A stretch of 61,186 nucleotides of DNA from Leptolyngbyaceae cyanobacterium C42_A2020_001 (GTDB lineage: Bacteria > Cyanobacteriota > Cyanobacteriia > Leptolyngbyales > Leptolyngbyaceae): contig JACYLN010000031.1 of the NCBI GenBank assembly GCA_015272515.1, positions 1 through 61,186 on the forward strand, read 5' to 3'. The position numbers and the translations under genes were made by a program. The notes below the pieces were generated by a model. The model was not told the origin of the DNA. It was given only the letters and a program-made list of their open reading frames with translations, and did no database searches. Shown one piece after another: positions 11,210 through 61,167 of this stretch; within the stretch, counting starts at the first letter, position 1, and the number at the start of each line of letters is the position of its first letter.

Positions 11210-11411
11210 TTAAGCAGCAGAACTTACGGGTGACGAAGGACTGTTAGGAAAAGTGATTTGAAAACAGGTGCCTGTATGTTGGGTCAGCTCTAATGTTCCC
11301 TGCAATTGTTCAACTAACTCACAGACGATTTGCAGCCCTAATGATTCGGTGCTGTGGATGTTTAGACCATCGGGAATGCCTACCCCATCATCGCAGACAC
11401 ATAATAAAAAC
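11210..11411 (-). pseudogene. Out-of-frame remainder of the PAS/GAF kinase ATPase domain
   Basis: Directly after the premature stop of the large kinase, the neighbouring reading frame encodes about 65 residues that complete its ATPase domain. CDDGVGIPDG is the G1 box, ESLGLQIVCELVEQL is the G2 region and GTCFQITFPN is the last strand, ending at a stop at 11210-11212. Adding a single T to the T5 run (A5 at 11406-11410 on the plus strand) joins both parts into one uninterrupted protein. This is either a natural disabling mutation, a phase-variable homopolymer or an assembly error. Confidence 0.8.
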
Positions 11412-15024: not shown

Positions 15025-15151
15025 AGGGCAAGTAATGAAGCATGACGGGCGCAATCGGCTTCTATAGGTTAGCGGGAGATTTTATCAAACTCCAACCATC
15101 ATTTGACTAACTTACATGATGTGTAACTATCTCGCCCTCACCTCTCCAACC

Positions 15152-19900: not shown

Positions 19901-20374
19901 ATTCATGAAGGTGACCCGTCCATCGCGATCGGTGATAATGGTGCCGTCGCCAATGCTGGTCAGGGTGGTGGTTAACCACTGCTCTGTTTGTTCTAGTTGT
20001 TTTTCTAAGCGATGTCGTTGCAGGGCAATTCTGATGGCGGTAATCAACTCAGTTTGGTTGAAGGGCTTGACCAGATACCCAAACGGTTCTGTGGCGATCG
20101 CTCGTTGCAGAATTGCATCTTCCGTATTTGCACTTAAGTAGATTACGGGAATCCCGAACTGTTGATGAATTTGTTCAGCCGCTGTAATCCCATCGATTTC
20201 CCCTCGTAAATAAATATCCATAAAGATTAGATCGGGGTGCAAATCATTGGCAAACTGAATGGCTTCCAAACCTGTTTCTGCGATCGCCAAAATCTCATGT
20301 TCCGACCGTTCTAAGAAATCCCGAATGCTTTGAGCGGCAACTAATTCATCTTCAACGAGTAGGATTCTTGCCAT
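16913..20374 (-). CDS. Hybrid sensor histidine kinase (REC-PAS-PAS-GAF3-HisKA-HATPase)
   Basis: A 1153-residue cytoplasmic hybrid. A receiver (1-120, with LIFMDIYLRGEIDG and LVKPF) precedes two PAS domains (about 130-250 and 260-390), then three GAF domains (about 400-550, 570-720 and 740-905), a coiled linker, HisKA with SHELRTPM, and a full HATPase domain (LLTNACKYTPAG, TNTGVEIPD, GTGIGLALV). All catalytic boxes are intact, unlike the neighbouring kinase. GAF1 holds DPCL and a later Cys-Phe but not the Cys-His of bilin lyase-type sites, so chromophore binding is doubtful. The ATG at 20374 was preferred over a TTG at 20398. It leads a minus-strand run with anmK. Confidence 0.92.
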   Translation of the reverse strand: MARILLVEDELVAAQSIRDFLERSEHEILAIAETGLEAIQFANDLHPDLIFMDIYLRGEIDGITAAEQIHQQFGIPVIYLSANTEDAILQRAIATEPFGYLVKPFNQTELITAIRIALQRHRLEKQLEQTEQWLTTTLTSIGDGTIITDRDGRVTFMNPVAEALTGWQQSEALGVSAAQILDLVNSETQEAIANPLLRAMQEGTLVNLPEQCILRTKDGIERAIGDSATPIRNRQGEILGGVLVFQDITERKRAEELRYQQEEEFRALVENSPDVIARFDRNLRHLYINSSIEEVTGIPATAFLGKTNREMGMPENLVAFWEEKLYEVFTTQQEQTIEFDAVTLNGLRYFQSRIVPEFAQDGSVITILSISRDITDRKQVEEELRLQAEREQLLGVITQRIRESLELNDILHTAVNEVRQILHADRVVLYRFEANWSGFVIVESMEPGWTSMLGQQIYDPCLATEACILPFARGKVSIVSNIQTSGLADCFVALLREYQIQANLVIPILEAEQLWGLMAVQQCAAPRDWQSWEVDFLTRLSAKLSLAIQQSQLYQQTQQLAQREQSLNRVIQAVRNSLDLNTIFNTAVSEIGTLLQVDQATILQYFPEQSVWVHLATYCQNPAQAAAYLGLEIPDEGNPQTAVIKRREILRVDNASALEDEFSQILAETFPGAWLQVPLQVNDRVWGQISLIRHEQPFVWQDWQIDLISAIADQLAIAIHQSQLYTEVQRLNTNLEGQVLERTAQLQQALSYEALLKRITDKVRDSLDENQILQTVVAELGKELGVQYCGAALYSSDLQSGVIAHEYAVSPSLAATNPHFQISQELAADVYTQLFQAQYCQFCLAVPNPHRPAEQDHTILACPIFDDQGVLGDLWLFKPVASIFTNVEIRLVEQIANQCAIALRQSRLYQEAQAQVTELERLNRLKDDFLSTISHELRTPMASIKMGIQMLEIVLRPLGLLDASSGSARQYFEILQTECDREIELIDNLLKLSRLDAETEPLMLSTVQPKIWISYAVEPFSERIRNQEQTLELQLPDGLPPLVTDLAHLGQILNELLTNACKYTPAGESIIVFANAGEEGLQIGVTNTGVEIPDTEIPRIFDRFYRIPNNDPWRYGGTGIGLALVKKLVDHLGAAIAVESGSNQTTFIITFPT

Positions 20375-20689
20375 AAAAGTAAGGTTCCACTGACTCAAAT
20401 CAGCAGTTCTAAAAATACTATTGTTGCTAGATTGAGCGAATACTGTACAGAGAGTAATTCAGGAACTTTGTTTTAGTGGCGAATACGTGACACAAACTAT
20501 TAGTTCCCTGAAAACCCTTGAAACATTCAGTTCCCAAGAAGCTGGGGGGCAGGTCACAAGTGTGGATGCACGTTGAGCAAAACCTGACTTATTCACTGGC
20601 TCAATTCAACAGAAGCGCTGAACTAAAACGCTGTTCACCAGCCAAGCCGATTTGAAAATACGAATATACCAGAATTGGCAGGAGTTCCG

Positions 20690-22120
20690 TCAAGCAGCTT
20701 TCCAGGTGCCATGAAAACTGATGGGCACGATCGCAGGAAGTGCCAGACGACACATTGGCTCATCCTCTAAACGGCGACTGTCAAAAATCCACAACTCGCT
20801 ACGATTCTGGCGGCTGTTATACAACACAACCAAAATCCATCCCTGCGCTGGGTTGGTGGCATCGGGTGCGTAAATTGGTTCGTTGACGTAGCTGCGATCG
20901 CCTAAATTTGCCTGGGTGAGGGTGCCAGTGTGATGATCGAACCGGGCGATCGCGTCATACACCTCTGTCTGAATATCGGTTGTGGTTCTGTGAACTGTGA
21001 GGTAGGTGTAGCGGGAGGGTTGTCCTACTTCGTGGGGATGGCTAATCGGAAACTCGCAACTTTGGCTGAGGATTTCTTGCATTTCCAGAACTTTGCCACT
21101 CTGGGGAGCGAGGCGTAACTGCCAGAGTGTGGCTTTGGCAAACGTTTGGATTGTTCCTGTGGCAACTTCTTTGAGGCGCTGATTGGTTTGGAAATCGGGA
21201 TAGCGAGCCATTGTGATCGAGATCGAACCATCCGGCAACTCATATCCGTTGCCAAAATGCCATTGATACCAGGGGACTGTTGTGGTGCGGCTTACCGCTT
21301 CTAGCGTGTCTCGATCAATCACTAAAATTTCAGTTCCTAGTTCTGGTTGCCATTCCATTGCATCGCTGAAGCTCTTAAGCCGCGCCAATACTGGAAGCAC
21401 CTGAATCCGCACGGGAGGGATACAAAAGACCAGATACCGACCCGCGATCGCGCAATCGTGAATCAGCGGTAACCCATTGATAGGAATTGAATTTTGCTGT
21501 CGCAGAGTGCCAGTAGCATCGCTGCGATAAAGATTTAGCGTTGTTTGCCGACCGATGACTACTCCAAAATTGTAAATGTCCCCGGTTTGAGAGTCGCATT
21601 TGGGATGAGCGGAGAAATTACGTCCTTGTAAGCCATTGAGATCTTCTAGTCCAATAGTTTCGAGTGTTTTTAGATCCAGTGCATGAGGCATTCCGCCTTC
21701 CCACAACGCCAAAAGCTTATCGGGCAAGGCTAATACGGAGGTATTTGCCACATTTTTCACGTCTTTGTTGAAACGCGTCCATAGTGGACCAGGTGGCAGC
21801 ATCCCGTAGTTGGCAAAGATGTAATGTCCGGCTTTTGCTTCTTCCTGAAATCCCTGTGTTTGAATGTAGCGATACAGCCCAACTGCGCCGACATCAGTGA
21901 AATGAACGCCTAAGATTCCACCATCGCCATCAAACCAGTGCCCAACTCGCAAACCACTGCGCTCTAGCTGAGCTGGACCGTTGCGATAAAGGGAGCCTCG
22001 CAACCCAGACGGAATTTCTCCTGAGAGAGCTTCTAATGAAACTGGACCAAATTCCTGGGCTGGAGTCAGGACTCCGCTTGCCCAGGCTGGAGTTTGAGTA
22101 GGTTGTAAGGTGTTGATCAT
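20690..22120 (-). CDS. Carotenoid oxygenase (RPE65/apocarotenoid-15,15'-oxygenase family)
   Basis: A 476-residue non-haem iron dioxygenase that cleaves carotenoids or apocarotenals. The four iron-binding histidines of the seven-bladed propeller are all found: His172 in SAHPK, His221 in LIHDC, His288 in WHFGN and His470 in FHGTW close to the C-terminus. The N-terminal GSLYRNGPA and HWFDGDG motifs also match the family. No signal peptide is seen. The product may be retinal or another apocarotenoid; substrate cannot be told from sequence. It lies 160 bases downstream of the small barrel gene on the same strand. Confidence 0.92.
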   Translation of the reverse strand: MINTLQPTQTPAWASGVLTPAQEFGPVSLEALSGEIPSGLRGSLYRNGPAQLERSGLRVGHWFDGDGGILGVHFTDVGAVGLYRYIQTQGFQEEAKAGHYIFANYGMLPPGPLWTRFNKDVKNVANTSVLALPDKLLALWEGGMPHALDLKTLETIGLEDLNGLQGRNFSAHPKCDSQTGDIYNFGVVIGRQTTLNLYRSDATGTLRQQNSIPINGLPLIHDCAIAGRYLVFCIPPVRIQVLPVLARLKSFSDAMEWQPELGTEILVIDRDTLEAVSRTTTVPWYQWHFGNGYELPDGSISITMARYPDFQTNQRLKEVATGTIQTFAKATLWQLRLAPQSGKVLEMQEILSQSCEFPISHPHEVGQPSRYTYLTVHRTTTDIQTEVYDAIARFDHHTGTLTQANLGDRSYVNEPIYAPDATNPAQGWILVVLYNSRQNRSELWIFDSRRLEDEPMCRLALPAIVPISFHGTWKAA

Positions 22121-36651: not shown

Positions 36652-36983
36652 GGATTTGCAATTGCACTGTCTTACCAGGCTCTAGCTTATCGTGATTGGG
36701 TAGACCTCTCCCTCCCAACCTCCCTCTCCGACGCGGAAAGGGAGGAGCCACGAAAATCTTGAATTTGAAGTTCTTCTCCTTGAGAAGAGGGATTTAGGGA
36801 TAGGTCAAAATCAGCATTCATCGAAGTCACATTAGCTTCTCGTGATTGGGGCATGAACTTGGTTCTCATCCCCCCTGCCCCCAGCCTTAATAATTGATAG
36901 GCACTATAAGATAAGCGGGTAAGGGTGTTGTAAAGATGATTGCTCTCTTTTTTACATTTCCTAGATGAAATCAGGTGCTTGCT
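36652..36983. repeat. Gap with C/T-rich element flanked by 18-bp direct repeats
   Basis: TAGCTT-TCGTGATTGGG occurs at 36683-36700 and again at 36833-36850 with one mismatch. The 132 bases between hold CCTCCCAACCTCCCTCTCC, a matching GGGAGG tract and the small hairpin CTTCTC/GAGAAG. It looks like a dispersed gap repeat that is flanked by, or has duplicated, its target. The remaining bases to 36983 should carry the promoter of the haemagglutinin-like gene. Confidence 0.5.
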
Positions 36984-39900
36984 ATGCTGCGATCGCTCAC
37001 TCTACTCACGATTGCAACTCCCCTCCTCCTGAGCGGTTTGCTGGTGTCTCCGGCTTTGGGGCAAATTGCTGGCGATGGCAGTTTAGGTACGCAGGTCAAC
37101 GGTTCGCTGACAAACCCCTGTAATGGCGGCATTTGCTTCATTACCAATGGCTCTCCACGAGGCAGCAACCTGTTCCATAGCTTTCGCCAATTCTCGTTAC
37201 GTAATCCGGCTGACTTTGCCGCGTTTCTGACGGCTCCAACCATTCAAAACGTGATTGTGCGAGTTACTGGAACGGGAGATCCCTTCGTTTCTACGATTAA
37301 CGGCACCATCATTACCAGTAATCCCGCCAACTTTTTTCTGCTCAACCCCAACGGCATTGTATTCGGTCCGGGAGCCAGCTTGAATGTCGGTGGTTCGTTT
37401 CTGGCAACGACTGCCGATCGCTTGCTGTTTCAAAACGGGATTGAGTTTCGTACTACCGATTCGGCTCCCCTGCTGACGGTGAATGTTCCAATTGGGTTGG
37501 GCTTTACGGGAACACCAAAATCGATTCAAACGCGATCGTCCCTGCTGTCAACCGCTATCGACAATGACTTTAATAGTTTCACATTGGTCGGCGGCAACAT
37601 TCAGCTAGATAACACGCTGATTCAATCTCCCGGACAACGGGTTGAACTGGGCAGCGTTGGAGCACCTGGTACTGTGGGGCTAACTCTGCAAAACAATCGG
37701 TTGCAACTGGCGTTTCCTACTACGCTTGCCCGTGCAGATATTGCACTAACCAATAGCTCAAGTATTGATGTGCTAGCAACTGGCGGTGGTGAAATTGCCC
37801 TTACAGGGCGCAACATTACTATGAGCGGCAACAGCTCTTTGAATGCAGGTATTGCCTTTAGTTCCGACTTCACTCCACTGAGATCGGGCGATATAACACT
37901 GGATGCCACTGGCGCGATCGCAATTACGGGTGGTGGCGTGTTCAACCAAATTCTTCAGGCGTTTGGCGTGTCAGGCAATATCCAAATCAACGCCCGCTCG
38001 CTGACGTTGCAGCAGGGGGGGCAAATCAACACATCTAATGTCCTCGGCTTGGGCAAAGGCGGGAACATTACGATTCGCATTCAGGATGGGATTGTGGCGG
38101 ATGGGGTGAGTGAACGTGACCCCGCAACCGGACTCATCAACACATCGGGGATCGGAAGTGTGGTGTTTGGGTTAGGAGTCGGGGGAGACATCAATGTTTC
38201 CGCTGCTTCTCTGCGATTTACCAACACCGCCCAAATCAATACCTCGGTGGTGGGCATTGGTACGGCTGGCAATGTCACGATTCAGGCGCGAGATGGGATT
38301 TTCTTTGATGGCAATAATCGTACTCCAGCGATCGCTGGAGCAAATGCCTTTGCGGGAATTGGCAGTGTGGTGGTTGGGTCGGGGCAAGGCGGCAATATTC
38401 AAGTTTCAACTGGGTCGTTGAGCTTTGTGGGAGGTGCCCAAATCAATGCCTCGGCGGGGGGACTCGGCGGCATTGCCGGAAATGTCACGATTCAGGCACG
38501 CGATACCGTTTTGTTTGACGGCATTCGCACCAGCGAAGGAGCCGAGGGAGGTATCTTCAGTGCGCTGCAAGCCTTCTCTGGTCGAGGGGGTGATGTGCAG
38601 ATTGAGGCAACCCGATTAACCGTTGCCAATGGTGCTCAGGTCAACACCTCAACCAGAGGAATAGATGGAGACGGGGGAAACATTTTCATTCGGGTGGATA
38701 CGTTGAATGTGTTGAATGGAGGGTTACTGGGTAGCATTACAACCAGCAACGGCAAGGCTGGCGATGTCACGGTTCAAGCGCGGGGAACGGCGCTGTTTCG
38801 GGGAGCCGATACCGGAATTGTGACAACGAGTGGGAGTGATGGGCGGGGTGGAGACGTGAGCGTAACGGCGAACTCCCTGGTGCTTGGGGATGGAGCGATT
38901 CTTTTCAGTGGGGCGGCAGGTGCAGGTAACTCTGGCGCGATCGCAATTCAGGCTCAAAACAATGTTTTGGTTGAGACAGGCTCCAGCATTTTGACAACGA
39001 CGTTAGGAAACGGTCGGGGCGGAGATTTGTTGATTCAAGCCGATGCGTTCACCCTGAGAGATGCAGGCATGATCACTGGAACGCTAGGTTCTGGAGATTC
39101 GGGTAATCTTACTCTGCGTGTCAACGGGCAACTGGAGTTGGCGAATGGCACTATATCGAGCGGTAGTTTTTTCTTTCGAGACCTTTTGGTTGTGCTTCAG
39201 CGTACTGGAACGATTAATCAACTGAATCCGGTTGAGGTCAGCCAGGCGATCGAATTTATCAACACTCTGGGGCAAAACGCAGGCACTTCGGGAGACATTA
39301 ACATTGAGGCACGGTCAATTCGGCTCAATCGCGGCAGTTCCATTGCTGCCTCAGCCGTGTCTGGTAAGGGTGGAAATATTCAACTGAAAGCTCAAGAGTT
39401 ACTGCTGCTGCGGCGGAATTCAACCATCACGACGCAATCTGGAATCCTCTCTAACACGGCAACTGGGATCGGGTTTGGCGGCAGTGGCGGCAATATCACC
39501 ATTAACGCGCCGTTTGTGGTGGCCGCTCCCCTGGAAAACTCGGACATCATTGCCAATGCTTTTGGTGGCGCAGGGGGACGGCTCACGATTAACGCTCAAG
39601 GCATCTACTGGCTCACGCCACGATCGCGGGCTGATTTAGAGCGATTACTGCGAACGCGGAATCCTTTTGAACTAGATCCGCAACGATTACCAACGAATGA
39701 CATTACCTCGTTTTCCCAATCCAACCCCGCGATCGCCGATCAGGTATTTATCAACACGCCTGATGTAGATCCCAGTCGAGGGCTACAGCAACTTCCCTCA
39801 TCTTTGATCGATCCCGCTCAACAGGTTGCCCAAACCTGTAATTCTAGAAACACGCAACGGGCTGGTTCTTTCACCTTAACTGGACGGGGTGGCTTACCTA

Positions 39901-40184
39901 GCAGCCCAACAGAGCCACTATCCGATGAGATGGGCCTGGCTGAATGGGTGGCAATCTCAGGCCGCACTGAGCCAACAGCCCAGACTGAACAACCTACCCA
40001 GAACGTGAATGTATCCAAACGCCAGCAGAATAGGGTGAAGACTGAGCCAGTGTCACTTGCCAATCGCTCCATTGTTGAGGCGAATGGTTGGATTCTAGAC
40101 AGCCAAGGAAATGTGACCTTGATAGCAGCAAACCCAACGGCTAGCCCTGCAACTCCCGGTCTTCTCCCTGTCACTTGTAACTAA
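36984..40184 (+). CDS. Filamentous haemagglutinin N-terminal domain protein (TpsA-like, secreted)
   Basis: A 1066-residue exported protein. A signal peptide (MLRSLTLLTIATPLLLSG to about LGQ) leads into the TPS/FhaB secretion domain (about 30-165) with NPANFFLLNPNGIVFGPGAS and GGSFLATTADRL. Then come many beta-helix coils with the pattern GGNIxIxA/GNVTIQARD (about 200-880), and a C-terminal region with QVAQTCNSRN and a low-complexity linker. It should leave the cell by a TpsB outer-membrane partner, which is not in the window. The ATG at 36984 was chosen over a GTG three codons earlier. Likely roles are adhesion or aggregation. Confidence 0.88.
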   Translation: MLRSLTLLTIATPLLLSGLLVSPALGQIAGDGSLGTQVNGSLTNPCNGGICFITNGSPRGSNLFHSFRQFSLRNPADFAAFLTAPTIQNVIVRVTGTGDPFVSTINGTIITSNPANFFLLNPNGIVFGPGASLNVGGSFLATTADRLLFQNGIEFRTTDSAPLLTVNVPIGLGFTGTPKSIQTRSSLLSTAIDNDFNSFTLVGGNIQLDNTLIQSPGQRVELGSVGAPGTVGLTLQNNRLQLAFPTTLARADIALTNSSSIDVLATGGGEIALTGRNITMSGNSSLNAGIAFSSDFTPLRSGDITLDATGAIAITGGGVFNQILQAFGVSGNIQINARSLTLQQGGQINTSNVLGLGKGGNITIRIQDGIVADGVSERDPATGLINTSGIGSVVFGLGVGGDINVSAASLRFTNTAQINTSVVGIGTAGNVTIQARDGIFFDGNNRTPAIAGANAFAGIGSVVVGSGQGGNIQVSTGSLSFVGGAQINASAGGLGGIAGNVTIQARDTVLFDGIRTSEGAEGGIFSALQAFSGRGGDVQIEATRLTVANGAQVNTSTRGIDGDGGNIFIRVDTLNVLNGGLLGSITTSNGKAGDVTVQARGTALFRGADTGIVTTSGSDGRGGDVSVTANSLVLGDGAILFSGAAGAGNSGAIAIQAQNNVLVETGSSILTTTLGNGRGGDLLIQADAFTLRDAGMITGTLGSGDSGNLTLRVNGQLELANGTISSGSFFFRDLLVVLQRTGTINQLNPVEVSQAIEFINTLGQNAGTSGDINIEARSIRLNRGSSIAASAVSGKGGNIQLKAQELLLLRRNSTITTQSGILSNTATGIGFGGSGGNITINAPFVVAAPLENSDIIANAFGGAGGRLTINAQGIYWLTPRSRADLERLLRTRNPFELDPQRLPTNDITSFSQSNPAIADQVFINTPDVDPSRGLQQLPSSLIDPAQQVAQTCNSRNTQRAGSFTLTGRGGLPSSPTEPLSDEMGLAEWVAISGRTEPTAQTEQPTQNVNVSKRQQNRVKTEPVSLANRSIVEANGWILDSQGNVTLIAANPTASPATPGLLPVTCN

Positions 40185-49455: not shown

Positions 49456-50286
49456 TTACCAGAGCGGCAAGTTTCCCATTGCAGCTTCTTGAAGATGTTG
49501 TTGTACCAGAATGGATGTGAGGAGTTCTTCGTCACGATCGCTGACAGGCGGAATTGGAATGGCATGGCTGAGAGTTGGAGCATCATCTCGCAAACGCGGT
49601 GACTGTGATGGTTTTGCATATTGACGATTAAGTTGGGGAATGCGATCGCATAGATATTGATACAGTTGCTGCAAGTTGGGATGGTCTTTTTCACTCAGCG
49701 ATCGTAAGCCTTCTAACAAAACATAGGTAAATGAACCATGATGTAGTTCATCAATGCTTTGAGCTGTTTGATTAAAATCTGATGCAAACACTGTCACAAC
49801 ATCAACAGGATCAGTTCCAAATCCCTGTCCAAACTGTTGATACTCTGTTCGACACGCATCTAGCAATAAAACAATATTGTTTGTTCCGCTGCGCCGTAAG
49901 CATTCAACCAAGTCTTCTAGCGCAATGGCTGTGTGCTCTGGAGCATCTGGTTTTGAATCACTTAGCATCAAGTAATCTCGGTTAGCAAAATGTAAACCAT
50001 GACCACTAAAGAAAAACCAAAGCACATCGCCTGGATTGAGAAATGGAGTGATGAATCGAAGCTGAAGAAATTCTTTGAGATTTGCAAATGTGGGCTGACT
50101 TGAGATTGCAATGCCTTCATCTAAAACATTATCTAAGTCAATGTTTGCAAAGCAATAGATTTGGTTGTAGCTCTGTTCTGAGAGGAGCAATGCCCGAAAC
50201 ATCACTGCATCTTGTCTGGCAGTTGGTAAATAATCTAGCCAGAGGTATGCCTCAATACCAATTGCGATCGCCCAATGTCTGGTCAT
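49456..50286 (-). CDS. Orthocaspase (peptidase C14), short form
   Basis: A 276-residue caspase-like protease with the same catalytic layout as the protein at 29460-30899: His96 in FFFSGHGLHF and Cys145 in LLLDACRTE, at identical positions. FGQGFGTDP and VVTVFASDFNQ are shared too. It ends soon after the p20-like domain, in a helix-prone tail (DEELLTSILVQQHLQEAAMG), with no membrane helix or C-terminal domain. It should be cytoplasmic. Two paralogues 20 kb apart may differ mainly in location. Confidence 0.9.
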   Translation of the reverse strand: MTRHWAIAIGIEAYLWLDYLPTARQDAVMFRALLLSEQSYNQIYCFANIDLDNVLDEGIAISSQPTFANLKEFLQLRFITPFLNPGDVLWFFFSGHGLHFANRDYLMLSDSKPDAPEHTAIALEDLVECLRRSGTNNIVLLLDACRTEYQQFGQGFGTDPVDVVTVFASDFNQTAQSIDELHHGSFTYVLLEGLRSLSEKDHPNLQQLYQYLCDRIPQLNRQYAKPSQSPRLRDDAPTLSHAIPIPPVSDRDEELLTSILVQQHLQEAAMGNLPLW

Positions 50287-51408: not shown

Positions 51409-52491
51409 ATGAATCGGGCTTGCTATGACCTTTTGCAATCAAATTCTATGAATACTGCATCAATGATCAGTTACGGCTCCTCTCAAATGCCTCAACGATT
51501 GCATCCTCTCAGTCTTTTTGCTCAAGTAACAAGCCAGCAAGTTAGTGGATGCTTGCGTGTTACGAGTGGAGCAGTCATTTGGTTTATTTTTTTAGAAAAG
51601 GGCAAGTTGTCGTTTGCCTCAAATTCGATTAATCCATTTGAACGCCTCGATCGCCATCTGAATCACTTAAGTCTGCAAGTTCCAGCCCTGGTGAGCGCAG
51701 TTCGAGCACAGGCGCGATCGCTGTTTGAGCGGAGCAAGGATGGACAGTCTCTTACTCCGCCAGATTACCTGGCGGTTCGCTGGCTGGTTGATCAGCATTA
51801 CCTGAGCGCGACTCAAGCGGCTCATTTAGTCGGTGAGTTGGCAAAGGAAGTGTTTGAGTCACTTTTACGAGTGAGTGAAGGTAGTTATGAGTTAATTGAA
51901 AGTCAAGTTGCTCCTGATTTTTCTACGTTGTGCCAACTTGAATTGCGTCCTCTTGTGGAATATTGCCAAGCCCAATTACGACGACAATCAGTGGCGCGGT
52001 CTTCTACGTTCTCGTTTCAAGAAGCCCCATCGCAGGAGGCGCTTGAAGCATCTTACGGTACTGGTTCAGATCCAACACTTGGAACGGAAGGACCCTTTAC
52101 AACGCCTGAATCCAATGCCTTAAAGGGTGGATACACGATCGCGTGTATTGACGATAGCCCTACTGTTCTCCAGGCTATTAACTCATTTCTGGAAGACAGT
52201 AATCTCTCAATTGTCATGATTAATGACCCACTTAAGGCATTGATTCAAATCATTCGCTGTAAACCAGACTTGATACTGCTGGATGTAGGAATGCCTAATC
52301 TGGACGGGTATGAGCTTTGCTCAATGTTGCGAAGACATCCCAATTTCAAAACCACGCCGATTGTGATGGTCACTGGAAATACTGGTTTTATTGATCGTGC
52401 AAAGGCAAAGCTAGTTGGTGCATCAGGTTATTTGACGAAACCGTTTACTCGTCCAGAGTTAATGAAGATGGTGTTTAAGCATTTAACATAA
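51409..52491 (+). CDS. PatA-type response regulator (PATAN/DUF4388-REC)
   Basis: A 360-residue regulator, PixG/PilG-like. The N-terminal PATAN domain (about 25-175) shows LSLFAQVTSQQVSGCLRV, FIFLEKGKLSFA and AKEVFESLLRVSEGSYEL. A flexible linker leads to a receiver (about 243-360) with ACIDDSPTV, the phospho-acceptor in LILLDVGMPNLDGYEL and YLTKPF. In known systems such proteins drive type IV pilus motors or assembly at the cell pole. It opens the five-gene operon. The next gene follows after 18 bases. An internal Met at 51448 is an alternative start. Confidence 0.9.
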   Translation: MNRACYDLLQSNSMNTASMISYGSSQMPQRLHPLSLFAQVTSQQVSGCLRVTSGAVIWFIFLEKGKLSFASNSINPFERLDRHLNHLSLQVPALVSAVRAQARSLFERSKDGQSLTPPDYLAVRWLVDQHYLSATQAAHLVGELAKEVFESLLRVSEGSYELIESQVAPDFSTLCQLELRPLVEYCQAQLRRQSVARSSTFSFQEAPSQEALEASYGTGSDPTLGTEGPFTTPESNALKGGYTIACIDDSPTVLQAINSFLEDSNLSIVMINDPLKALIQIIRCKPDLILLDVGMPNLDGYELCSMLRRHPNFKTTPIVMVTGNTGFIDRAKAKLVGASGYLTKPFTRPELMKMVFKHLT

Positions 52492-52509: not shown

Positions 52510-52887
52510 ATGGCTGCAACGCTCGTGCACACAATTTTGATTGTTGATGATACTCCATCGGAAATGGAGTTGATTAGCCACTATTTACAGGAAGGTGGAT
52601 ATAGCGTCATTGGTGTAGTAAATGCAAATACAGCGCTTAATCAAGCAATTGAACATCAGCCTGATGTGGTGATTACAGATGTGGTAATGCCTGGACTGAG
52701 CGGATTTGAGCTATGCCGCAGTTTAAGAAAACATCCTGCAACTGAGAAAGTTCCCATCATTATTTGCACGTCTAAATCTCAAGAAATCGATCGCTTGTGG
52801 GGAATGAAACAGGGAGCTGATTTTTACCTGACTAAACCCTTTACGCGGGAGCAATTATTGCGTGCCGTTCAAACTGTTGTGAATTAA
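52510..52887 (+). CDS. CheY-like response regulator (PixH/PilH-like)
   Basis: A 125-residue single receiver with ILIVDDTPSEM, phospho-acceptor Asp in VVITDVVMPGLSGFEL, the Thr switch in IIICTSK and Lys in YLTKPFT. Cyanobacterial operons of this kind place a PilH/PixH-type regulator second, where it drains phosphate from the kinase or sets pilus retraction. AAAGAGGT precedes the ATG. It is 18 bases after the PatA-type gene and 11 before cheW. Confidence 0.92.
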   Translation: MAATLVHTILIVDDTPSEMELISHYLQEGGYSVIGVVNANTALNQAIEHQPDVVITDVVMPGLSGFELCRSLRKHPATEKVPIIICTSKSQEIDRLWGMKQGADFYLTKPFTREQLLRAVQTVVN

Positions 52888-53444: not shown

Positions 53445-56400
53445 ATGATGGAACGTTCAGATGCCGTGAATTTTAACGAAACTCAGCCTGAATTAACACT
53501 GACAGATGGGGCGCTATTCGATGAATTGAGCGATCGCCCAAATGGTAGTTCTTCCGCCTATACTCCCTCTACTTCAAGGGCTGTCAATTCCCCACACCCT
53601 GGGTTTGTAGGGTTGCCAAAGTACACCCTAAAACCGACTGTTTCGCAATCTGAATTGTTTCCATCCTACTCTTTAAATCCCAAGTCATCTTTGCGGCGCG
53701 AGTTAGTGTTTAACATTCTGCCGTGGGTGCTGGCTCCTGCTGGAACCGCTGCCTTAGCTGCCTACGGAATTGCCGCTTCTCAGGATATGAAGCAGGTGGA
53801 GCAAGAGTTACAAGACCAGGTGATTGCTGTGAGTCAATCCACTCGTGATCGCCTCAACACGGCCCGCCGAGTTCCCCAATTGCTGGCTCCTGACCCAGCC
53901 GTGGTGGAGTTCTCGCAACAGATGAGCGCTGAACTGGAGCAAATGCGGCTGGCTCATGCTTCTAACAAAGAGGTAGACTCCAGAGATCGGAGTTATTTGC
54001 GATCGCAGGCGGCGCAAATCACGGGCAACCTCAAGCGAATTGCTCAAGCCTCTGGCTTTATGGAATTGTCTCTGACTGATAAAAACGGTGTTTACATTGC
54101 CGCAACTCACTCCACCCCAGAACTAATCCAACGAGACAAAGCCTGGTGGAAGCAAACCAAGCAGGATGGCGAACTGACGCGTTTGGTAACCGATGGGGCG
54201 GGCGCAGTGGCAGGCGTGGATGTGGCACGAGCGATCGCAGATCCCAACAGCGCCAAATTCGTGGGAACGGTACGCGGTCGGTTCACGGTGAATGAAATTA
54301 ATCGTGCCCTGAGCGTCATTCCGCTGACTCGACTGGCAAGCACTCAGCAAGTGCAAATTGTAGCGCTTGAGGGTAACCAGTTACAGCCCGTAGGCACTCT
54401 TACCGCAGAAGGATTTACCCGGACAGCTCAAGTGTTGGGGGGGAGCGATATTGCTCAAGACTTGACGAAGTTACTCACTCAGCCCCCCTCCCCTAAAGAA
54501 ATTTCAGATCCACAATCTCCGATTAAATGGGTGAACTATCGGGAGGATGGCAGTAGTACGGCTGAAAATCGAGGATTACTCACGAGCTTTTCCCGCAACG
54601 GCAAGTTTTACACCCTGGCAACGATTCCGGGCAGTAACTGGGCAACGGTGTCCAGCGTGGATCTGGCAGAAGTGAGCCTGAATCCCAATTGGGCATGGGC
54701 GATCGCGGCAGTGGTCTTTACGCTGGCTGCTGTTGCTGCCTACGGCATATCGCGGATGTCACGGCGTTGGGCAAAAGTGCTGACTGAACTAAGCTATGCC
54801 TGTGACAATGCAGCGGCAGGTAATTTGAATGTGCAACTCGCACCGACCGGTTCTGGTGAATTACAGCGGCTCACTCGTAGCTTCAACGAATTTGTTACAG
54901 CGGTGAAAGCGCAGATGCAAAACCAGGCGGAGGCGATTCAGCAATCCCAGTTTTACGCAGAACTGTCACAGGCAGCGGGTAGGGGCGATACCCAAACTGT
55001 ATTCGACTTAACTGTGCAGCTTGCGAGACACCAAATGGCGGCTGACCGAGTAGTGATCTATTGCTTTGAGCCTGATTGGAGCGGCAGAATTGTGGCAGAG
55101 GCGGTTGATGGTAACTTTCCCAGGGCACTCAACGATAAGATTACCGACGCTTGCATTCCTCGTGCCACGTTAGAAGAGTATCGTAAAGGTCGCTATGTGC
55201 CTACCAGTGACGTGTTTGCGACCAATTACTCAGCGGCGCATTTGCAACTGCTGGAGCGGCTACAGGTAAAAGCAAACCTGGTGGTGCCTGTGGTATCGGG
55301 CGATCGCTTGCTGGGCTTGCTCGTGGCACATCAATGCTCCACTACTCGCATCTGGACGCAAGACGACATCACGTTTTTGCGAGAATTGGCGGCGCAGGTT
55401 GGCTTGGCACTTACTGGCACCACCCTGGCAGCGGAAAAAGCCGAAGAAGCGGAACGGGCACGGCAACTCAACAAAATCACTTTCCGGATGCGGGAAGTGT
55501 TAGAGCCAGAACAAATCTACACAACCACGCTGGAAGAAACGCGAGATGTGCTGAAGTGCGATCGCACAGTTGTCTACTTGTTTGACCAAAATTGGCAAGG
55601 CTCTGTAGTTGCCGAGTCGGTTGAAAGCCCGTGGACACCCGCCCTCGGTGCCCGCATTGTTGATCCTTGCTTTGCAGCTTCCTACGTTGAGAAATACCGA
55701 CGGGGAAGGGTGCAAGTTCTATCTAATATTTACGAAGCGGGGTTAGATCCTTGCTATATGGGGCAGTTAGAGCCGTTTGAAGTCAAAGCAAATATGGTGG
55801 CTCCTATCCTCGTCGGCGAAGACCTCAAAGGCTTGTTAGTAGCGCATCAGTGTTCAGCTGCACGGGTATGGCAAGAGTCAGAAATTAACTTCTTTCGGCA
55901 AGTTGCAATTCAGCTTGGATTTGCTCTAGACCAGGCAAATTTGCTAAAACAGCAGCAAGAAAGCACAAAACGAGCACAGCAATTGAATGAGATCACGTTC
56001 CGAATTCGCCAATCTTTAAGATGGGATGATATTCTCAGCGCCACTGTTCGAGAGCTTCGTCAAGCACTCAATCTTGATCGAACGGTGATTTACAAATTCA
56101 ATGCAGACTGGAGTGGCAAAGTCATTGCTGAATCGATTACTGGAAATTGGCGAGAGATTTTAGGTGAAACTGTTCAGGAGTCGATGCGAGAAGGTTTAAT
56201 TGAAATGTATCGCAACGGCAATGTTGCCACGATCGCGGATGTTCATGCGGGAGACTCTACAGACTATTGTCACAAGATTCTGGACGGGTTTCAAATTCGA
56301 GCCAGCATGACAGCACCGATTATGAAAGGCAATCACCTGATTGGGCTACTCTGTGCCCATGTGTGTTCTAGCCCACGACAATGGCAGGCAACTGAAATTG

Positions 56401-58031
56401 ACCTGTTCAACCAATTAGCAGTCCAAACCAGCTACGCCCTAGAACAAGCAACGCTCTTGAAGCAACAGGAAGATACTGCTCGGTATGCCAGCTTGCTGAA
56501 CGACATCACCTTCCGTATGCGGGAAGTGCTGGATCGCCAGCAGGTGTTTGGGGTGGCAGTGCAAGGGACACGCGAAGCGCTGAAGTGCGATCGCGTTTTA
56601 GTCTATCTCTTCGACAAAACCTGGAAAGGTTCCATTGTTGCCGAATCGGTTGGGCGTGGTTTTCCAGTGGCGTTAGGAGCCAACATCGCCGATCCCTGTT
56701 TTGCCGAAGAGTATGTTGAAAAGTACCGCCGAGGTCGGGTTCATGCCCTCACTGATATTGCGAAAGCGGGACTCGATCCCTGCTATCTGAAGCAATTAGA
56801 ACCGTTTGAAGTTAAAGCTAACATCGTAGCTCCCATTTTGATGGCAGGTAATCTACTCGGTTTACTGTGTGCCCATCAGTGCAATGCTCCACGGGAATGG
56901 CAGGATAATGAAGTCAACTTTTTGCGGCAAACTGCGATTCAGCTTGGATTTGCGGTAGAGCAAGCCAACCTATTTGCAGAGAAAGAGCAGGCTCGATTGC
57001 AGGCAGAAAGCATTTCTCAGGAACAACGCCAGCAAAAGGAAACGTTGCAAGAACAACTGTTAGAACTATTGAAAGATGTAGAAGGGGCTGCTAGTGGCGA
57101 CCTTACCGTTCGAGCCGATGTCACAGCCGGAGAAATTGGCACGGTTGCTGACTTTTTCAACTCAATTGTGGAGAACTTACGCCAGATTGTTGTGCAGGTG
57201 AAGCAGTCTGCGAAGAAGGTAGGCACCTCTCTCGGTGAAAATGAGGGCGCAATGCAGCAACTCGCGCAAGAAGCGATGACGCAGGCAGATGAAACGATTC
57301 AAACGCTGAAATCAGTTGAGCAAATGAAACAACTCATTCTGACGGCGGCAGATAGCGCTCGGCAGGCGGCAGAGGTGGCTCACACGGCTTCTAGCACGGC
57401 TGAAATGGGAGGGGCGGCAATGGATTCGACTGTGCAGAACATTCTGCATTTACGAGAAACCATTGGCGAAACTGCAAAAAAAGTGAAACGTTTGGGTGAA
57501 GCATCGCAGCAAATTTCTAAAGTGGTGTCGCTGATTAACCAAATTGCGATGCAAACAAATCTGCTGGCAATCAACGCTGGAATTGAAGCGGCAAGAGCCG
57601 GAGAGGAAGGGCAGGGATTTGCGGTGGTTGCGGAAGAAGTGGGTGAACTGGCAGCACGATCAACGGTTGCAACTCAAGAAATTGAGCAAATTGTCAACGC
57701 GATTCAGCGAGAAACTAGCGAAGTGGTGGCGGCGATGGAGAAAGGAACTACTCAGGTGGTTGAAGGAACGCATTTAGTAACAGATGCAAAACAAAGTCTT
57801 GAAAAAATCTTGCAAGTTTCTCAACAAATTGACGGATTAGCCCAATCCATTTCGACATCGGCTGCCTCTCAAGTACAAACTTCACAGGCGATCGCGGGCT
57901 TAATGGAAAAAGTTGCCAAAACGGCTGGGCAAACTTCCAAATCATCACGCAAAGTGTCTGATTCGTTGCGGCAAACCGTTCAAGTTGCCAAAGAACTTCA
58001 AACGTCCGTTGAAACCTTCAAAGTTAACTGA
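53445..58031 (+). CDS. Methyl-accepting chemoreceptor with four GAF domains, PixJ-like candidate photoreceptor
   Basis: A 1528-residue membrane receptor. The order is a Ser-rich N-terminus, TM1 (about 88-112), a Cache-like periplasmic part, TM2 (about 415-437), HAMP, GAF1 (510-660), GAF2 (690-835), GAF3 (860-1005), GAF4 (1035-1180), a second HAMP and the MCP signalling hairpin with [23 protein letters not shown]2 has DPCF with Cys742 and a second Cys, Cys770 (PCYMG). GAF4 has DPCF with Cys1085 and Cys1113 (PCYLK). Both pairs are 28 residues apart, as in DXCF cyanobacteriochromes. GAF3 has only Cys942-His943. GAF1 lacks the canonical Cys. Bilin binding is thus likely in GAF2 and GAF4 and possible in GAF3, which would make this a phototaxis receptor. 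Confidence 0.92.
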
Positions 58032-58056: not shown

Positions 58057-61000
58057 ATGTCAAAGGAACTCGAAATTCGCCGTCAGTTTCTCGATGAGGC
58101 GCAGGAATATTTAGATGCACTAGATACTGCTGTTATAGGGCTTTCTGGTGGACGTGTGGATATTCAAAAAGTCAATGCGGCCCTCCGGGCGGCTCACTCC
58201 ATCAAAGGTGGCGCTGGCCTGATGGGCTTCCAATTGCTCAGTCAACTTGCCCATCGGTTAGAAGATTCGTTCAAAATCTTAAAAACTCAAAATCAGTCTG
58301 TTGAGGTGGATGCAGCGTTAGAGAATTTGCTGTTAAGCGGAATTGATTGTCTACGAACTACGATTCATCAGCATCAACAGGATCAATTGATTGATCTAAC
58401 CTGGACTGAACAGCAGGTTGAACCTGTATTTCAGCAACTCCACGATCGCTTGGGTGAGCCACCTGATGAAGATGCAGTATCTGTTCTCGCAACCGATAGT
58501 GGGCAAGATGTGATTGCACTGTTGTTTGAGACGGAGGTGGAAGGCTGTTTGCAACGGTTAGAAGCGGTGCTTGCTGATCCTACGCAGCCCTGCCTCCAGG
58601 AGGAACTCACCATTCTGGCGCAGGAAATGGGCGGGTTAGGTGAAATGCTGCAATTGAAAACGTTCACCCAACTTTGTAGCGCGATCGAGCAGCTTGCGGG
58701 TTCCACTCCTGAACAAATTGAACACATTGCCCAATCAGCATTGAACGCGTGGCGGCGATCGCAAACCTTAATTCTCAGCGGTCAACTAGATCTACTACCC
58801 AGCATCCTTGAAGCAGACTTCCTGGAAATTCCTGAGTCGGTCAGTTCAGGGATTGAAGTAGCTGCTATTGAAACAGCGATCGCAGAGATTGAAGTGACTG
58901 CTCCAAGCATCACCGAAGCAATACCAGATGACCTGATGACAGCAGGAGAGAACTTTAGTCAAGCCACAACTATTGAGGCCGAGACACAGGAATGCAAATC
59001 ATTGGATGAGCTTGTTCAAACAGATAACGTAACATTTGAGTCAAGTGCTGCTAAAGACATTGATGCTGATCCGTTGCGATCGCCCAATGCTTCAGAAGCG
59101 CCATCCGTTGATTTCAGGTTTGAAGTCAAGTCTGATGCGACAGCCGCAACACCAGAAGCAGACCAGAACGCCACGGTTCGTGTTTCTGTTCGGCAGCTCA
59201 ATCAGTTGAATGACCTGTTTGCTGAGTTGACCATTGAACGAAATGGACTGAGCTTATATCTCAAACGTTTGCGAAACTTATCTCGTCTTCTGATGCAACG
59301 AGTGCGTTTACTGGAACAATCCAATACGCAACTGCAAACTGCCTATGATCGCATCATTCCCCATACAGTGGGACTCTCTAAACTTCCCTTGTTACTGCCA
59401 CCAGCCGAGCATTCTAGTTCTTCCTCGGTTGCATTGAATTCAGCTTCGTTTCAGGCTGCTCATGGCTCTTTTTCATCTTCTTTTGCCAATGAATTTGATA
59501 TTTTAGAACTGGAGCAATATAACGATTTGCACTTGCTTTCACAACAGGTGATGGAGACAATTGTGCAAATTCAAGAAGTGAGTACAGACATTGATTTAAG
59601 CCTGGATGATGCGGAGCAAACAGCGCGAGAACTAAACAAAACTGCTAAGCAACTGCAAACAAACTTGACTCAGATTCGGATGCGTCCGTTATCTGATATT
59701 GTCAGTCGGTTTCCTCGGGCTTTACGGGAATGGGGATTGCAATACGGTAAGCAAGCAAAATTAGTGGTGAAGGGTGGAAATACTCTGATCGAGCGCACCA
59801 TTTTGGAAGCTCTCAATGATCCCTTAATGCACTTACTGCGAAATGCGTTTGATCACGGAATTGAAACGCCGGAAGAACGGCGATCGCAGGGTAAGCCAAA
59901 CGAAGGCACGATTGAAATTCAAGCGGTTCATCGTGGAAATCGCACTGTCATCACGATCAATGATGATGGTAGGGGGATCTCGCTAGACAAAATTCGGACG
60001 AAAGCAGAGCAAATGGGCTTAGATCCAACATTGCTGGCGGCGGCAGATGAAAGAGATTTGCTGTCGTTGATCTTTGAACCTGGATTTAGCACCCGCGATC
60101 GCGTCACCGATTTATCAGGTCGAGGAGTTGGCTTAGATGTGGTGCGCGACAGTTTACGCCAAATTCGCGGCGAAATTAGCGTCAATACTCGTGCTGGTCT
60201 GGGAACTACGTTCACGCTATCTGTTCCGTTTACGCTCTCGATTGTGCGCGTGTTGTTGGCCCAAAGCAACGGCATTCTCCTGGCATTTCCAACCGATGCC
60301 ATCAAAGAAACGCTGTTGTTGGCAAACATGATCCCATCGCAAGATGGTGAAAACCTGATTTGGCAGGAACAACCGCTCAAACGCATTCAGTTGTTTCGCT
60401 GGCTTCAGTTCAACTGCCCCTGCCAACCAGCGACTCTTGAAACCGCTCCCAGCATTGACGCGCCCACCGTTTTAGTAGCAAGTCAGGGTAATCAACTGGT
60501 AGCAATTCAAGTGGAACGAACCTGGGGCGAACAAGAAGTGGCAATTCGTCGGGCAGAGGGGAATTTGGCGATGCCAGAAGGCTTTGCAGGTTGCGCGATC
60601 GTGGCGGATGGGCGCGTGGTGCCTCTGGTCAACATCACCGAAATGCTCGATTGGATCGTAAGCTGTGAACGAGATTCTAGCCGCACTGCAAAACTCACGC
60701 CATTCAATATTCCCAAAGGCTTGCTAAAACTGGATCGTGGGCTTCTACCAGCGATGACCGTAGCGAATGCTGCGATCGCTCCATCCACAATTTTGATCGT
60801 GGATGATTCCATCAACATCCGCCGCTTTTTAGCGTTGACTTTAGAAAAAGCAGGTTTTCGGGTGGAGCAAGCAAAAGATGGACTGGACGCGATGGATAAA
60901 CTTCAACGCGGCTCAACCGTGCAAGCGGTAATCTGTGACATTGAAATGCCACGGATGGATGGATTTGGCTTTTTAGCCAAGTTCAAATCTAATCCGCAGT

Positions 61001-61167
61001 TTGAGCAAATTCCCGTTGCTATGTTGACTTCCCGAACAGGTGAAAAACACCGTCAACTTGCTATGAGTTTGGGTGCGTCAGCTTACTTCGCCAAGCCCTA
61101 TAACGAGCAAGAACTCCTGCAAACTCTGGAATCCATGATTCAGACGAATGCTTCAGTGTGCTCCTGA
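58057..61167 (+). CDS. CheA-type histidine kinase with C-terminal receiver (PixL/PilL-like)
   Basis: A 1036-residue CheA hybrid. The N-terminal HPt domain carries the phospho-histidine His47 in AAHSIKGGAGL. A long acidic linker follows (about 240-370), then a dimerisation region, a HATPase domain (NDPLMHLLRNAFDHGIETPE, DDGRGISL, LSGRGVGLDVV), a CheW-like domain, and a receiver with ILIVDDSINIR, phospho-acceptor Asp in VICDIEMPRMDGFGF and YFAKPYN. The start at 58057 was chosen because earlier Met codons lie inside the receptor gene. It follows the receptor by 25 bases and completes the signalling chain from receptor to the PatA- and CheY-type regulators. The window ends 19 bases after its stop. 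Confidence 0.94.
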   Translation: MSKELEIRRQFLDEAQEYLDALDTAVIGLSGGRVDIQKVNAALRAAHSIKGGAGLMGFQLLSQLAHRLEDSFKILKTQNQSVEVDAALENLLLSGIDCLRTTIHQHQQDQLIDLTWTEQQVEPVFQQLHDRLGEPPDEDAVSVLATDSGQDVIALLFETEVEGCLQRLEAVLADPTQPCLQEELTILAQEMGGLGEMLQLKTFTQLCSAIEQLAGSTPEQIEHIAQSALNAWRRSQTLILSGQLDLLPSILEADFLEIPESVSSGIEVAAIETAIAEIEVTAPSITEAIPDDLMTAGENFSQATTIEAETQECKSLDELVQTDNVTFESSAAKDIDADPLRSPNASEAPSVDFRFEVKSDATAATPEADQNATVRVSVRQLNQLNDLFAELTIERNGLSLYLKRLRNLSRLLMQRVRLLEQSNTQLQTAYDRIIPHTVGLSKLPLLLPPAEHSSSSSVALNSASFQAAHGSFSSSFANEFDILELEQYNDLHLLSQQVMETIVQIQEVSTDIDLSLDDAEQTARELNKTAKQLQTNLTQIRMRPLSDIVSRFPRALREWGLQYGKQAKLVVKGGNTLIERTILEALNDPLMHLLRNAFDHGIETPEERRSQGKPNEGTIEIQAVHRGNRTVITINDDGRGISLDKIRTKAEQMGLDPTLLAAADERDLLSLIFEPGFSTRDRVTDLSGRGVGLDVVRDSLRQIRGEISVNTRAGLGTTFTLSVPFTLSIVRVLLAQSNGILLAFPTDAIKETLLLANMIPSQDGENLIWQEQPLKRIQLFRWLQFNCPCQPATLETAPSIDAPTVLVASQGNQLVAIQVERTWGEQEVAIRRAEGNLAMPEGFAGCAIVADGRVVPLVNITEMLDWIVSCERDSSRTAKLTPFNIPKGLLKLDRGLLPAMTVANAAIAPSTILIVDDSINIRRFLALTLEKAGFRVEQAKDGLDAMDKLQRGSTVQAVICDIEMPRMDGFGFLAKFKSNPQFEQIPVAMLTSRTGEKHRQLAMSLGASAYFAKPYNEQELLQTLESMIQTNASVCS

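What the first reader, a model, noticed from the sequence alone, without database searches (positions are those of the whole stretch)
53445..58031. Chemoreceptor with two DXCF-type cyanobacteriochrome GAF domains
Seen: GAF2 and GAF4 each contain DPCF followed by a second Cys exactly 28 residues later (Cys742/Cys770 and Cys1085/Cys1113). Known: in DXCF cyanobacteriochromes such as TePixJ, both cysteines hold the bilin and their spacing is 28. Inferred: this receptor senses blue/green or related light and feeds a Pix-type phototaxis chain. In both, the second Cys is followed by Tyr rather than the usual His, which may alter the photocycle. Two such modules plus a third candidate in one receptor is unusual and suggests dual-colour sensing.
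Basis: partly seen in the sequence, partly recalled or inferred. Interest (0 to 1): 0.75.

Follow-up and report, generated by a model that had tools for sequence, protein, structure and literature searches.

The report
PixJ-type light receptor, two DXCF sensors
The gene encodes a known kind of cyanobacterial light receptor for movement, with two of its four sensor modules fit to bind a light-absorbing pigment; the tyrosine beside the pigment-binding cysteine looks like a common, repeatedly evolved variant rather than a rarity.

Summary
The 1528-aa ORF has DPCF/Cys pairs 742/770 and 1085/1113, 28 apart, each second Cys followed by Tyr; 3 of 20,000 shuffles gave one such pair, none two. GAF2 and GAF4 each find TePixJ first among solved structures, ungapped across the motifs. 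The receptor sits in a Pix-type operon; the genome has PcyA, heme oxygenase and PilT-family genes.

Three inferences weaken. No third DXCF module: GAF1 kept the DXC cysteine but has Ala at the attachment site; GAF3 lacks the DXCF cysteine and its Cys-His pair is one residue nearer the helix core, leaving it only an uncertain single-Cys candidate. Tandem DXCF modules are not unusual: 19 of 48 sampled MCP receptors have two or more. Dual-colour sensing has no support: GAF2 and GAF4 agree at all eight TePixJ pocket positions checked.

Cys-Tyr is frequent in the sample: 49 of 197 dual-Cys modules, with 13 tree-independent His/Tyr contrasts. It is the only GAF in five other chemoreceptors, so it is probably photoactive. 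Ordinary family, mildly interesting variant.

The parts
51409..52491 (+). pixG-like response regulator: DUF4388 + receiver, 360 aa
   Evidence: Pfam PF14332 49.3 bits and PF00072 89.5 bits. That DUF4388 is the PATAN domain of PixG is recalled, not from a call.
52510..52887 (+). pixH-like single-domain response regulator, 125 aa
   Evidence: PF00072 98.6 bits
52899..53408 (+). pixI-like CheW, 169 aa
   Evidence: PF01584 71.5 bits
53445..58031 (+). pixJ-type chemoreceptor, 1528 aa: N-terminal region with a weak dCache match, HAMP, four GAF modules, MCP signalling domain
   Evidence: GAF four stretches, HAMP 438-487, MCPsignal 1309-1492
54945..55460 (+). GAF1 (residues 501-672): DXC cysteine kept (DACI, Cys570), attachment Cys replaced by Ala (AAH)
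   Evidence: ungapped alignment to TePixJ; clade with the same loss
55461..55976 (+). GAF2 (residues 673-844): DXCF cyanobacteriochrome module, Cys742/Cys770, Cys-Tyr
55977..56489 (+). GAF3 (residues 845-1015): no DXCF Cys (one-residue gap), motif Asp to Glu, Cys-His pair one residue nearer the helix core
   Evidence: HMMER instead keeps Cys under Cys by opening two one-residue gaps
56490..57005 (+). GAF4 (residues 1016-1187): DXCF cyanobacteriochrome module, Cys1085/Cys1113, Cys-Tyr
58057..61167 (+). pixL-like hybrid CheA: Hpt, HATPase_c, CheW, receiver (ATG start inferred from the reading frame)
   Evidence: scanned from 58051; NCBIfam CheA models 325.9 and 232.8 bits, both below their equivalog cut-offs of 950 and 793

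Best explanation
It is a PixJ-type photoreceptor-chemoreceptor of a Leptolyngbya-like cyanobacterium. GAF2 and GAF4 each take up phycocyanobilin through Cys770/Cys1113. The DXCF cysteines Cys742/Cys1085 help isomerise it to phycoviolobilin and reversibly attack C10, giving a blue-absorbing dark state and a longer-wavelength photoproduct. The two modules most likely have the same or nearly the same colour response. GAF1, and with less certainty GAF3, are most likely spacers or modules that do not bind bilin in the usual way. Photoconversion is passed through the linkers to the MCP domain, which with CheW tunes the CheA (PixL). Phosphate then goes to PixG/PixH, which bias type IV pilus motility. 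Tyr771/Tyr1114 in place of His probably tune stability, kinetics or wavelength without abolishing photoswitching. Shown here: sequence, motif, predicted fold of GAF2, operon, and genes for bilin synthesis. Inferred: bilin binding, colour, signalling direction, effect of Tyr, role in movement.
For: TePixJ is the best solved-structure match for GAF2 (3vv4, E=1.9e-41) and GAF4 (E=8.4e-44), with both cysteines aligned. GAF2 model pLDDT 88.1, pTM 0.86; it matches TePixJ entries with rmsd 1.1-2.2 A (4glq: TM by target 0.92, 1.2 A, 44% identity), the first hit by E-value being 6oap. At TePixJ D492, C494, F495, C522, Q526, L527 and N535 both modules have the TePixJ residue; at H523 both have Tyr (numbering from passages). 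Gene order RR-RR-CheW-MCP-CheA; a gene with a CheA signature stands beside the receptor in 10 of 20 fetched regions. PcyA equivalog 341.9 bits against a cut-off of 206, heme oxygenase, four PilT-family matches over cut-off. Five other chemoreceptors, picked because they looked single-GAF, have a Cys-Tyr DXCF module as their only GAF.
Against: No spectroscopy of this protein was found or done here. In red/green relatives Cys-Tyr goes with strong fluorescence and, in NpF2164g5 and miRFP670nano, no detectable photoconversion (PMC9378818 passages); in phytochrome Cph1 changes at His260 (the equivalent His, by recall) can abolish chromophore binding, though H260Q is nearly normal (PMC12420706 passages). 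So both modules could be poor switches. Of the five single-GAF Cys-Tyr receptors only two show a CheA signature next door (L073, L075). The stretch after the DXCF Cys has low model confidence (block mean 62). Pocket distances could not be measured because no coordinates are given out. GAF4 was not modelled.
Confidence: 0.82

Rival explanations
1. GAF2 and GAF4 bind bilin but the Cys-Tyr change locks them in the dark state, so the receptor is a fluorescent, light-insensitive scaffold or a very slow, power-type sensor.
For: NpF2164g5 (natural CY) and miRFP670nano (H87Y) show no detectable photoconversion; CH-to-CY in SPI1085g3 C448S goes with slow dark reversion and blue-shifts absorption by about 14 nm (PMC9378818 passages). 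H523 moves during TePixJ photoconversion (PMC6955287 passages).
Against: Those cases are red/green modules, and the passages describe a photoproduct state for the SPI1085g3 variant, so it still converts. Five chemoreceptors have a Cys-Tyr DXCF module as their only GAF. Thirteen independent His/Tyr contrasts are hard to square with loss of function each time.
Confidence: 0.15
2. A dual- or triple-colour receptor: GAF2, GAF4 and GAF3 (or GAF1) sense different colours.
For: GAF2 and GAF4 are only 61% identical, so tuning positions outside those checked may differ. GAF3 belongs to a clade whose members outside the window's genus carry a normal Cys-His pair, and HMMER aligns its Cys-His under that of 6oap by opening two one-residue gaps.
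Against: GAF2 and GAF4 are in one clade (9 rows, support 100/97) and agree at the checked pocket positions. GAF1 lacks the attachment Cys, as do all 17 distinct members of its clade. In GAF3 the Cys is one residue closer to the conserved helix Leu than in its relatives and the motif Asp is Glu.
Confidence: 0.12
3. The GAF modules are not photosensory; the receptor is a chemoreceptor with degenerate GAF domains.
For: An N-terminal dCache-like stretch (below Pfam's cut-off) could bind a small ligand; two of four GAFs lack a defining cysteine.
Against: Two intact dual-Cys motifs kept in the same-genus relative G002 at 93% and 92% identity; PcyA and heme oxygenase in the genome; the 50 listed of 1218 structural matches are bilin photoreceptors or fluorescent proteins made from them.
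Confidence: 0.04

Closest known systems
TePixJ (Thermosynechococcus) DXCF cyanobacteriochrome GAF, PDB 3vv4/4fof/4glq
   Same: Both cysteines, spacing 28, Asp, Phe, Gln, Leu and Asn of the pocket, fold, MCP output
   Different: The His after the attachment Cys is Tyr in both modules; two such modules in an array of four GAFs
PixJ1/TaxD1 of Synechocystis PCC 6803 and its tax1 (pix) operon
   Same: Two response regulators, CheW, GAF-MCP receptor and CheA; there too the first GAF does not carry the chromophore (PMC5812497 passages)
   Different: PixJ1 has two GAF domains; this one has four, two of them dual-Cys
Multi-GAF PixJ of filamentous cyanobacteria and of S. elongatus (1-5 GAF domains)
   Same: Tandem GAF array and MCP; P. 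lacuna's closest PixJ homologue has four GAFs (PMC8794177 passages; PMC13383048 passages)
   Different: I had no sequences of these to compare motif by motif
Cys-Tyr cyanobacteriochromes: NpF2164g5, miRFP670nano (H87Y), SPI1085g3 C448S_CY
   Same: Tyr directly after the attachment Cys (PMC9378818 passages)
   Different: Those are red/green-type modules; here it is in dual-Cys DXCF modules

Membership tests
DXCF cyanobacteriochrome (GAF2, GAF4) | Bilin-type GAF fold | tested here: met
   GAF2 model pLDDT 88.1; TePixJ 4glq TM 0.92, rmsd 1.2 A. GAF4 by sequence only.
DXCF cyanobacteriochrome (GAF2, GAF4) | Second Cys in an Asp-Xaa-Cys-Phe motif | tested here: met
   DPCF at 740 and 1083
DXCF cyanobacteriochrome (GAF2, GAF4) | Attachment Cys at the start of helix alpha-4, 28 residues on | tested here: met
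   Cys770 and Cys1113; in the GAF2 model the Cys is residue 98 of helix 97-106
DXCF cyanobacteriochrome (GAF2, GAF4) | Covalent bilin, PCB-to-PVB isomerisation, reversible C10 adduct, photoconversion | not testable with these tools
   needs protein and spectroscopy
DXCF cyanobacteriochrome (GAF1) | Both cysteines | tested here: not met
   DXC Cys570 present, attachment position is Ala
DXCF cyanobacteriochrome (GAF3) | DXCF cysteine | tested here: not met
   One-residue gap at the DXC Cys
Single-Cys cyanobacteriochrome (GAF3) | Attachment Cys-His in register with helix alpha-4 | tested here: inconclusive
   MAFFT puts the pair one column late; HMMER keeps it in place with two one-residue gaps
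PixJ / Pix phototaxis operon | GAF-MCP receptor encoded with CheW, CheA and two CheY-type regulators | tested here: met
PixJ / Pix phototaxis operon | PATAN domain on one regulator | tested here: inconclusive
   DUF4388 found; its identity with PATAN is recalled
PixJ / Pix phototaxis operon | Light-dependent control of type IV pilus motility | not testable with these tools
   PilT-family genes exist in the genome; function untested

The most novel reading that the evidence does not exclude
The residue after the attachment cysteine is a natural two-state tuning site of DXCF light sensors: His and Tyr, one base change apart, have switched many times (13 independent contrasts) and occur mixed inside 11 single reading frames, setting photocycle speed or wavelength module by module. 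Alongside it runs a PixJ first-GAF lineage, not found described in searches, that dropped the attachment cysteine but mostly kept the DXC cysteine and the His, and which could hold a bilin by C10 alone or act as a redox or apo module.
Probability: 0.25. Interest if true: 0.55.

Novelty: new member of a known kind. Interest (0 to 1): 0.3.

Why it matters
The receptor itself adds one more PixJ to a known family. What could matter is the Tyr: in the passages I read, Cys-Tyr is described as nearly confined to one red/green module and is linked to fluorescence and loss of switching, whereas in this sample it is frequent in DXCF modules and is the only GAF in some chemoreceptors. Testing His/Tyr swaps in matched pairs would show whether nature uses this one residue to set the speed or colour of light sensing.

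Tried and rejected
Dual-colour reading: set aside as unsupported because GAF2 and GAF4 group together and share the checked pocket residues. Third DXCF module: rejected. Rarity of tandem DXCF: rejected. GAF3 as clearly non-binding: softened, where HMMER keeps the Cys-His pair aligned; I raised the multi-colour rival from 0.10 to 0.12 for that. Search for a residue that co-varies with His/Tyr: 11 columns were tested with tree-independent pairs, but the printed output was cut in the middle, so I saw only part; the best of those seen was position 773 (Gly, median p 0.0625), which does not survive testing several columns. Predicting the photoproduct colour from Phe positions: dropped, since I could not map the positions of PMC5240096 securely.

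Papers not held: Fushimi 2020, Hasegawa 2018, Rockwell and Lagarias 2023, Rockwell 2022, Rockwell 2015, Fushimi and Narikawa 2021, a 2019 JBC paper and Narikawa 2013 (asked for by identifiers recalled or seen in reference lists). A Cys-Tyr DXCF module may be characterised there. My searches of the held library that bear on it were made; on GAFs without the attachment Cys.

Sampling limits: the modules come from loci fetched by similarity to the window's modules and to alignment A1, in which 11 of 22 rows are Cys-Tyr, so 49 of 197 is not an unbiased rate. Rows dropped: 487 aligned stretches became 313 after removing identical ones and those under 140 aa; 2 of the 313 are contained in others. 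Of 201 dual-Cys modules, 3 with Q, F or P after the Cys and 1 contained copy were left out to reach 197. One search lists 50 MCP receptors by a sequence signature; it has the window twice (L003, L004) and G045 twice (L060, L070), and I removed L003 and L070. The signature misses some MCPs (for example L074, L076, L081, which Pfam finds), and shared identical modules are counted once.
Full report
What is there. The + strand ORF 53445-58031 encodes 1528 aa. Pfam finds HAMP at 438-487, four GAF stretches and MCPsignal at 1309-1492; a dCache_1 match at 117-290 stays below its cut-off. The GAF array is four modules of 171-172 aa laid end to end: 501-672, 673-844, 845-1015 and 1016-1187. Upstream are a DUF4388-receiver protein, a single receiver and a CheW, and downstream a hybrid CheA: the gene set of the Synechocystis tax1 operon as described in PMC5812497 (passages).

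The cysteine motif. DPCF starts at 740 and 1083; cysteines 742/770 and 1085/1113 are 28 apart and the second is followed by Tyr. In 20,000 shuffles of the protein, 3 gave at least one such pair and none gave two. Against solved structures GAF2 finds TePixJ first (3vv4, E=1.9e-41) and so does GAF4 (E=8.4e-44), with both cysteines under C494 and C522 and no gap between (TePixJ numbering from passages of PMC6955287, and PMC7504144). The GAF2 model (22 rows, pLDDT 88.1, pTM 0.86) matches TePixJ entries with rmsd 1.1-2.2 A, for example 4glq with TM 0.92 by target and 1.2 A; the first hit by E-value is 6oap, a dual-sensor histidine kinase. The block just after the DXCF Cys is the weakest part (mean 62). 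No coordinates are released, so pocket distances were not measured. GAF4 was not modelled.

The other two GAFs. GAF1 aligns to TePixJ without gaps, with DACI under DPCF and AAH under ECH: DXC cysteine kept, attachment cysteine replaced by Ala, His kept. On a FastTree tree of 313 modules built without the motif columns, GAF1 falls in an 18-row clade (support 97) that holds the window's GAF1 twice. Of its 17 distinct modules, 0 have the attachment Cys, 14 have the DXC Cys and 15 have the His. Three further DXC-only modules lie outside that clade. This agrees with the report that in Synechocystis PixJ1 only the second GAF carries the chromophore (PMC5812497 passages), but I could not test whether PixJ1's first GAF belongs here. 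GAF3 belongs to a clade in which one residue is missing at the DXCF Cys (DP-F, DP-L, DP-M) and, outside the window's genus, a normal Cys-His follows. In the window and its same-genus relative G002 the motif Asp is Glu, and in the MAFFT alignment the Cys-His pair lies one column late (YCH and HCH against CH). HMMER, aligning GAF3 to 6oap, instead keeps Cys under Cys by opening a one-residue gap on each side. Either way the Cys is one residue closer to the conserved helix Leu than in its relatives. The GAF3 model keeps the fold (pLDDT 86.9). I read GAF3 as more likely unable to bind bilin in the usual way, with low confidence.

Is the tandem unusual? No. Among MCP receptors recognised by a sequence signature in the fetched loci, 48 after removing two duplicates, the number of dual-Cys modules was 0 in 1, 1 in 28, 2 in 14, 4 in 1, 5 in 3 and 6 in 1. 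The signature misses some MCPs and some loci are cut by contig ends, so the counts are rough. PixJ with one to five GAFs is in print (PMC13383048 passages), as are a four-GAF PixJ homologue in Phormidium lacuna and a five-GAF one in S. elongatus (PMC8794177 passages).

Is the tyrosine unusual? Of 201 dual-Cys modules in the sample, the next residue is His in 149, Tyr in 49, and Q, F or P in one each. After removing the last three and one contained copy it is 148 His and 49 Tyr, in 102 loci, 34 of them with Tyr, in six named orders among those loci that have an order. On a FastTree tree without the motif columns the state changes 21 times, and 13 pairs are independent on starred branches; treekit's own notes say stars of FastTree deserve less trust. 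Eleven single reading frames hold both states. The sample was drawn by similarity to the window and to an alignment half of whose rows are Cys-Tyr, so this is not a census. In red/green cyanobacteriochromes, by contrast, PMC9378818 (abstract and passages) says nearly all have CH, NpF2164g5 being the exception. There CH-to-CY raised biliverdin binding and fluorescence, blue-shifted absorption by about 14 nm and went with slow dark reversion, and photoconversion of NpF2164g5 and miRFP670nano (H87Y) was not detected. Five chemoreceptors that I scanned because they looked single-GAF each have one PF01590 stretch, an MCP domain and a Cys-Tyr DXCF motif (motifs); two of the five show a CheA signature next door. 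If those are light receptors, Cys-Tyr in this lineage does not mean blind. That step is inference.

One colour or two? GAF2 and GAF4 are 61% identical, group in one 9-row all-Tyr clade (100/97) and agree at the eight positions checked: those matching D492, C494, F495, C522, H523 (Tyr in both), Q526, L527 and N535. Nothing supports two colours, although other positions may differ. Typical DXCF modules convert PCB to PVB and switch between blue and green (PMC11284453, parts 1-2 of 6 and passages). I do not predict the photoproduct colour.

Can the cell make the pigment and move? The genome has one bilin reductase, a PcyA equivalog (341.9 bits, cut-off 206), one heme oxygenase and four PilT-family matches over cut-off. 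The GAF2 query has 34 matches in the genome, among them this receptor's own four modules and some split pieces, so other light-sensor candidates exist.

Verdict. A PixJ-type receptor with two DXCF modules, correctly spotted; ordinary for its family in architecture. The recurrent His/Tyr variation and the DXC-only first GAF are the parts worth a specialist's look.

Noticed in passing
window 54945-55460 (GAF1) and its clade: A GAF lineage without the attachment cysteine (0 of 17 distinct modules) but with the DXC cysteine (14 of 17) and the His (15 of 17); in those 14 the lost Cys is Ala, Asp or Glu.
   Followed up: partly
window 55977-56489 (GAF3) and clade: Single-Cys GAF modules that lack one residue at the DXCF cysteine (DP-F / DP-L / DP-M); in this genus the Cys-His pair is also one residue nearer the helix core.
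   Followed up: partly
window 11380-15054 (-): PAS/GAF sensor with HisKA_2; one GAF has DPCL and a Cys-His 28 residues on, another candidate cyanobacteriochrome.
   Followed up: no
window 16913-20398 (-): Receiver-PAS-GAF histidine kinase; one GAF is dual-Cys with Phe after the attachment Cys.
   Followed up: no
L070 6839-11650 (-) (genome G045): PixJ-like receptor with six DXCF modules at an exact 172-residue period; three group together at 99/98, two of them on very short branches, which suggests recent expansion or gene conversion.
   Followed up: no
window 49456-50286 (-): Caspase-domain protein (Peptidase_C14), about 1.1 kb upstream of the pix genes.
   Followed up: no
window 20690-22120 (-): RPE65-family carotenoid oxygenase, 0.3 kb beyond the 16913-20398 sensor kinase gene.
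   Followed up: no
window 36975-40184 (+): Large protein with an N-terminal TPS (two-partner secretion) domain.
   Followed up: no
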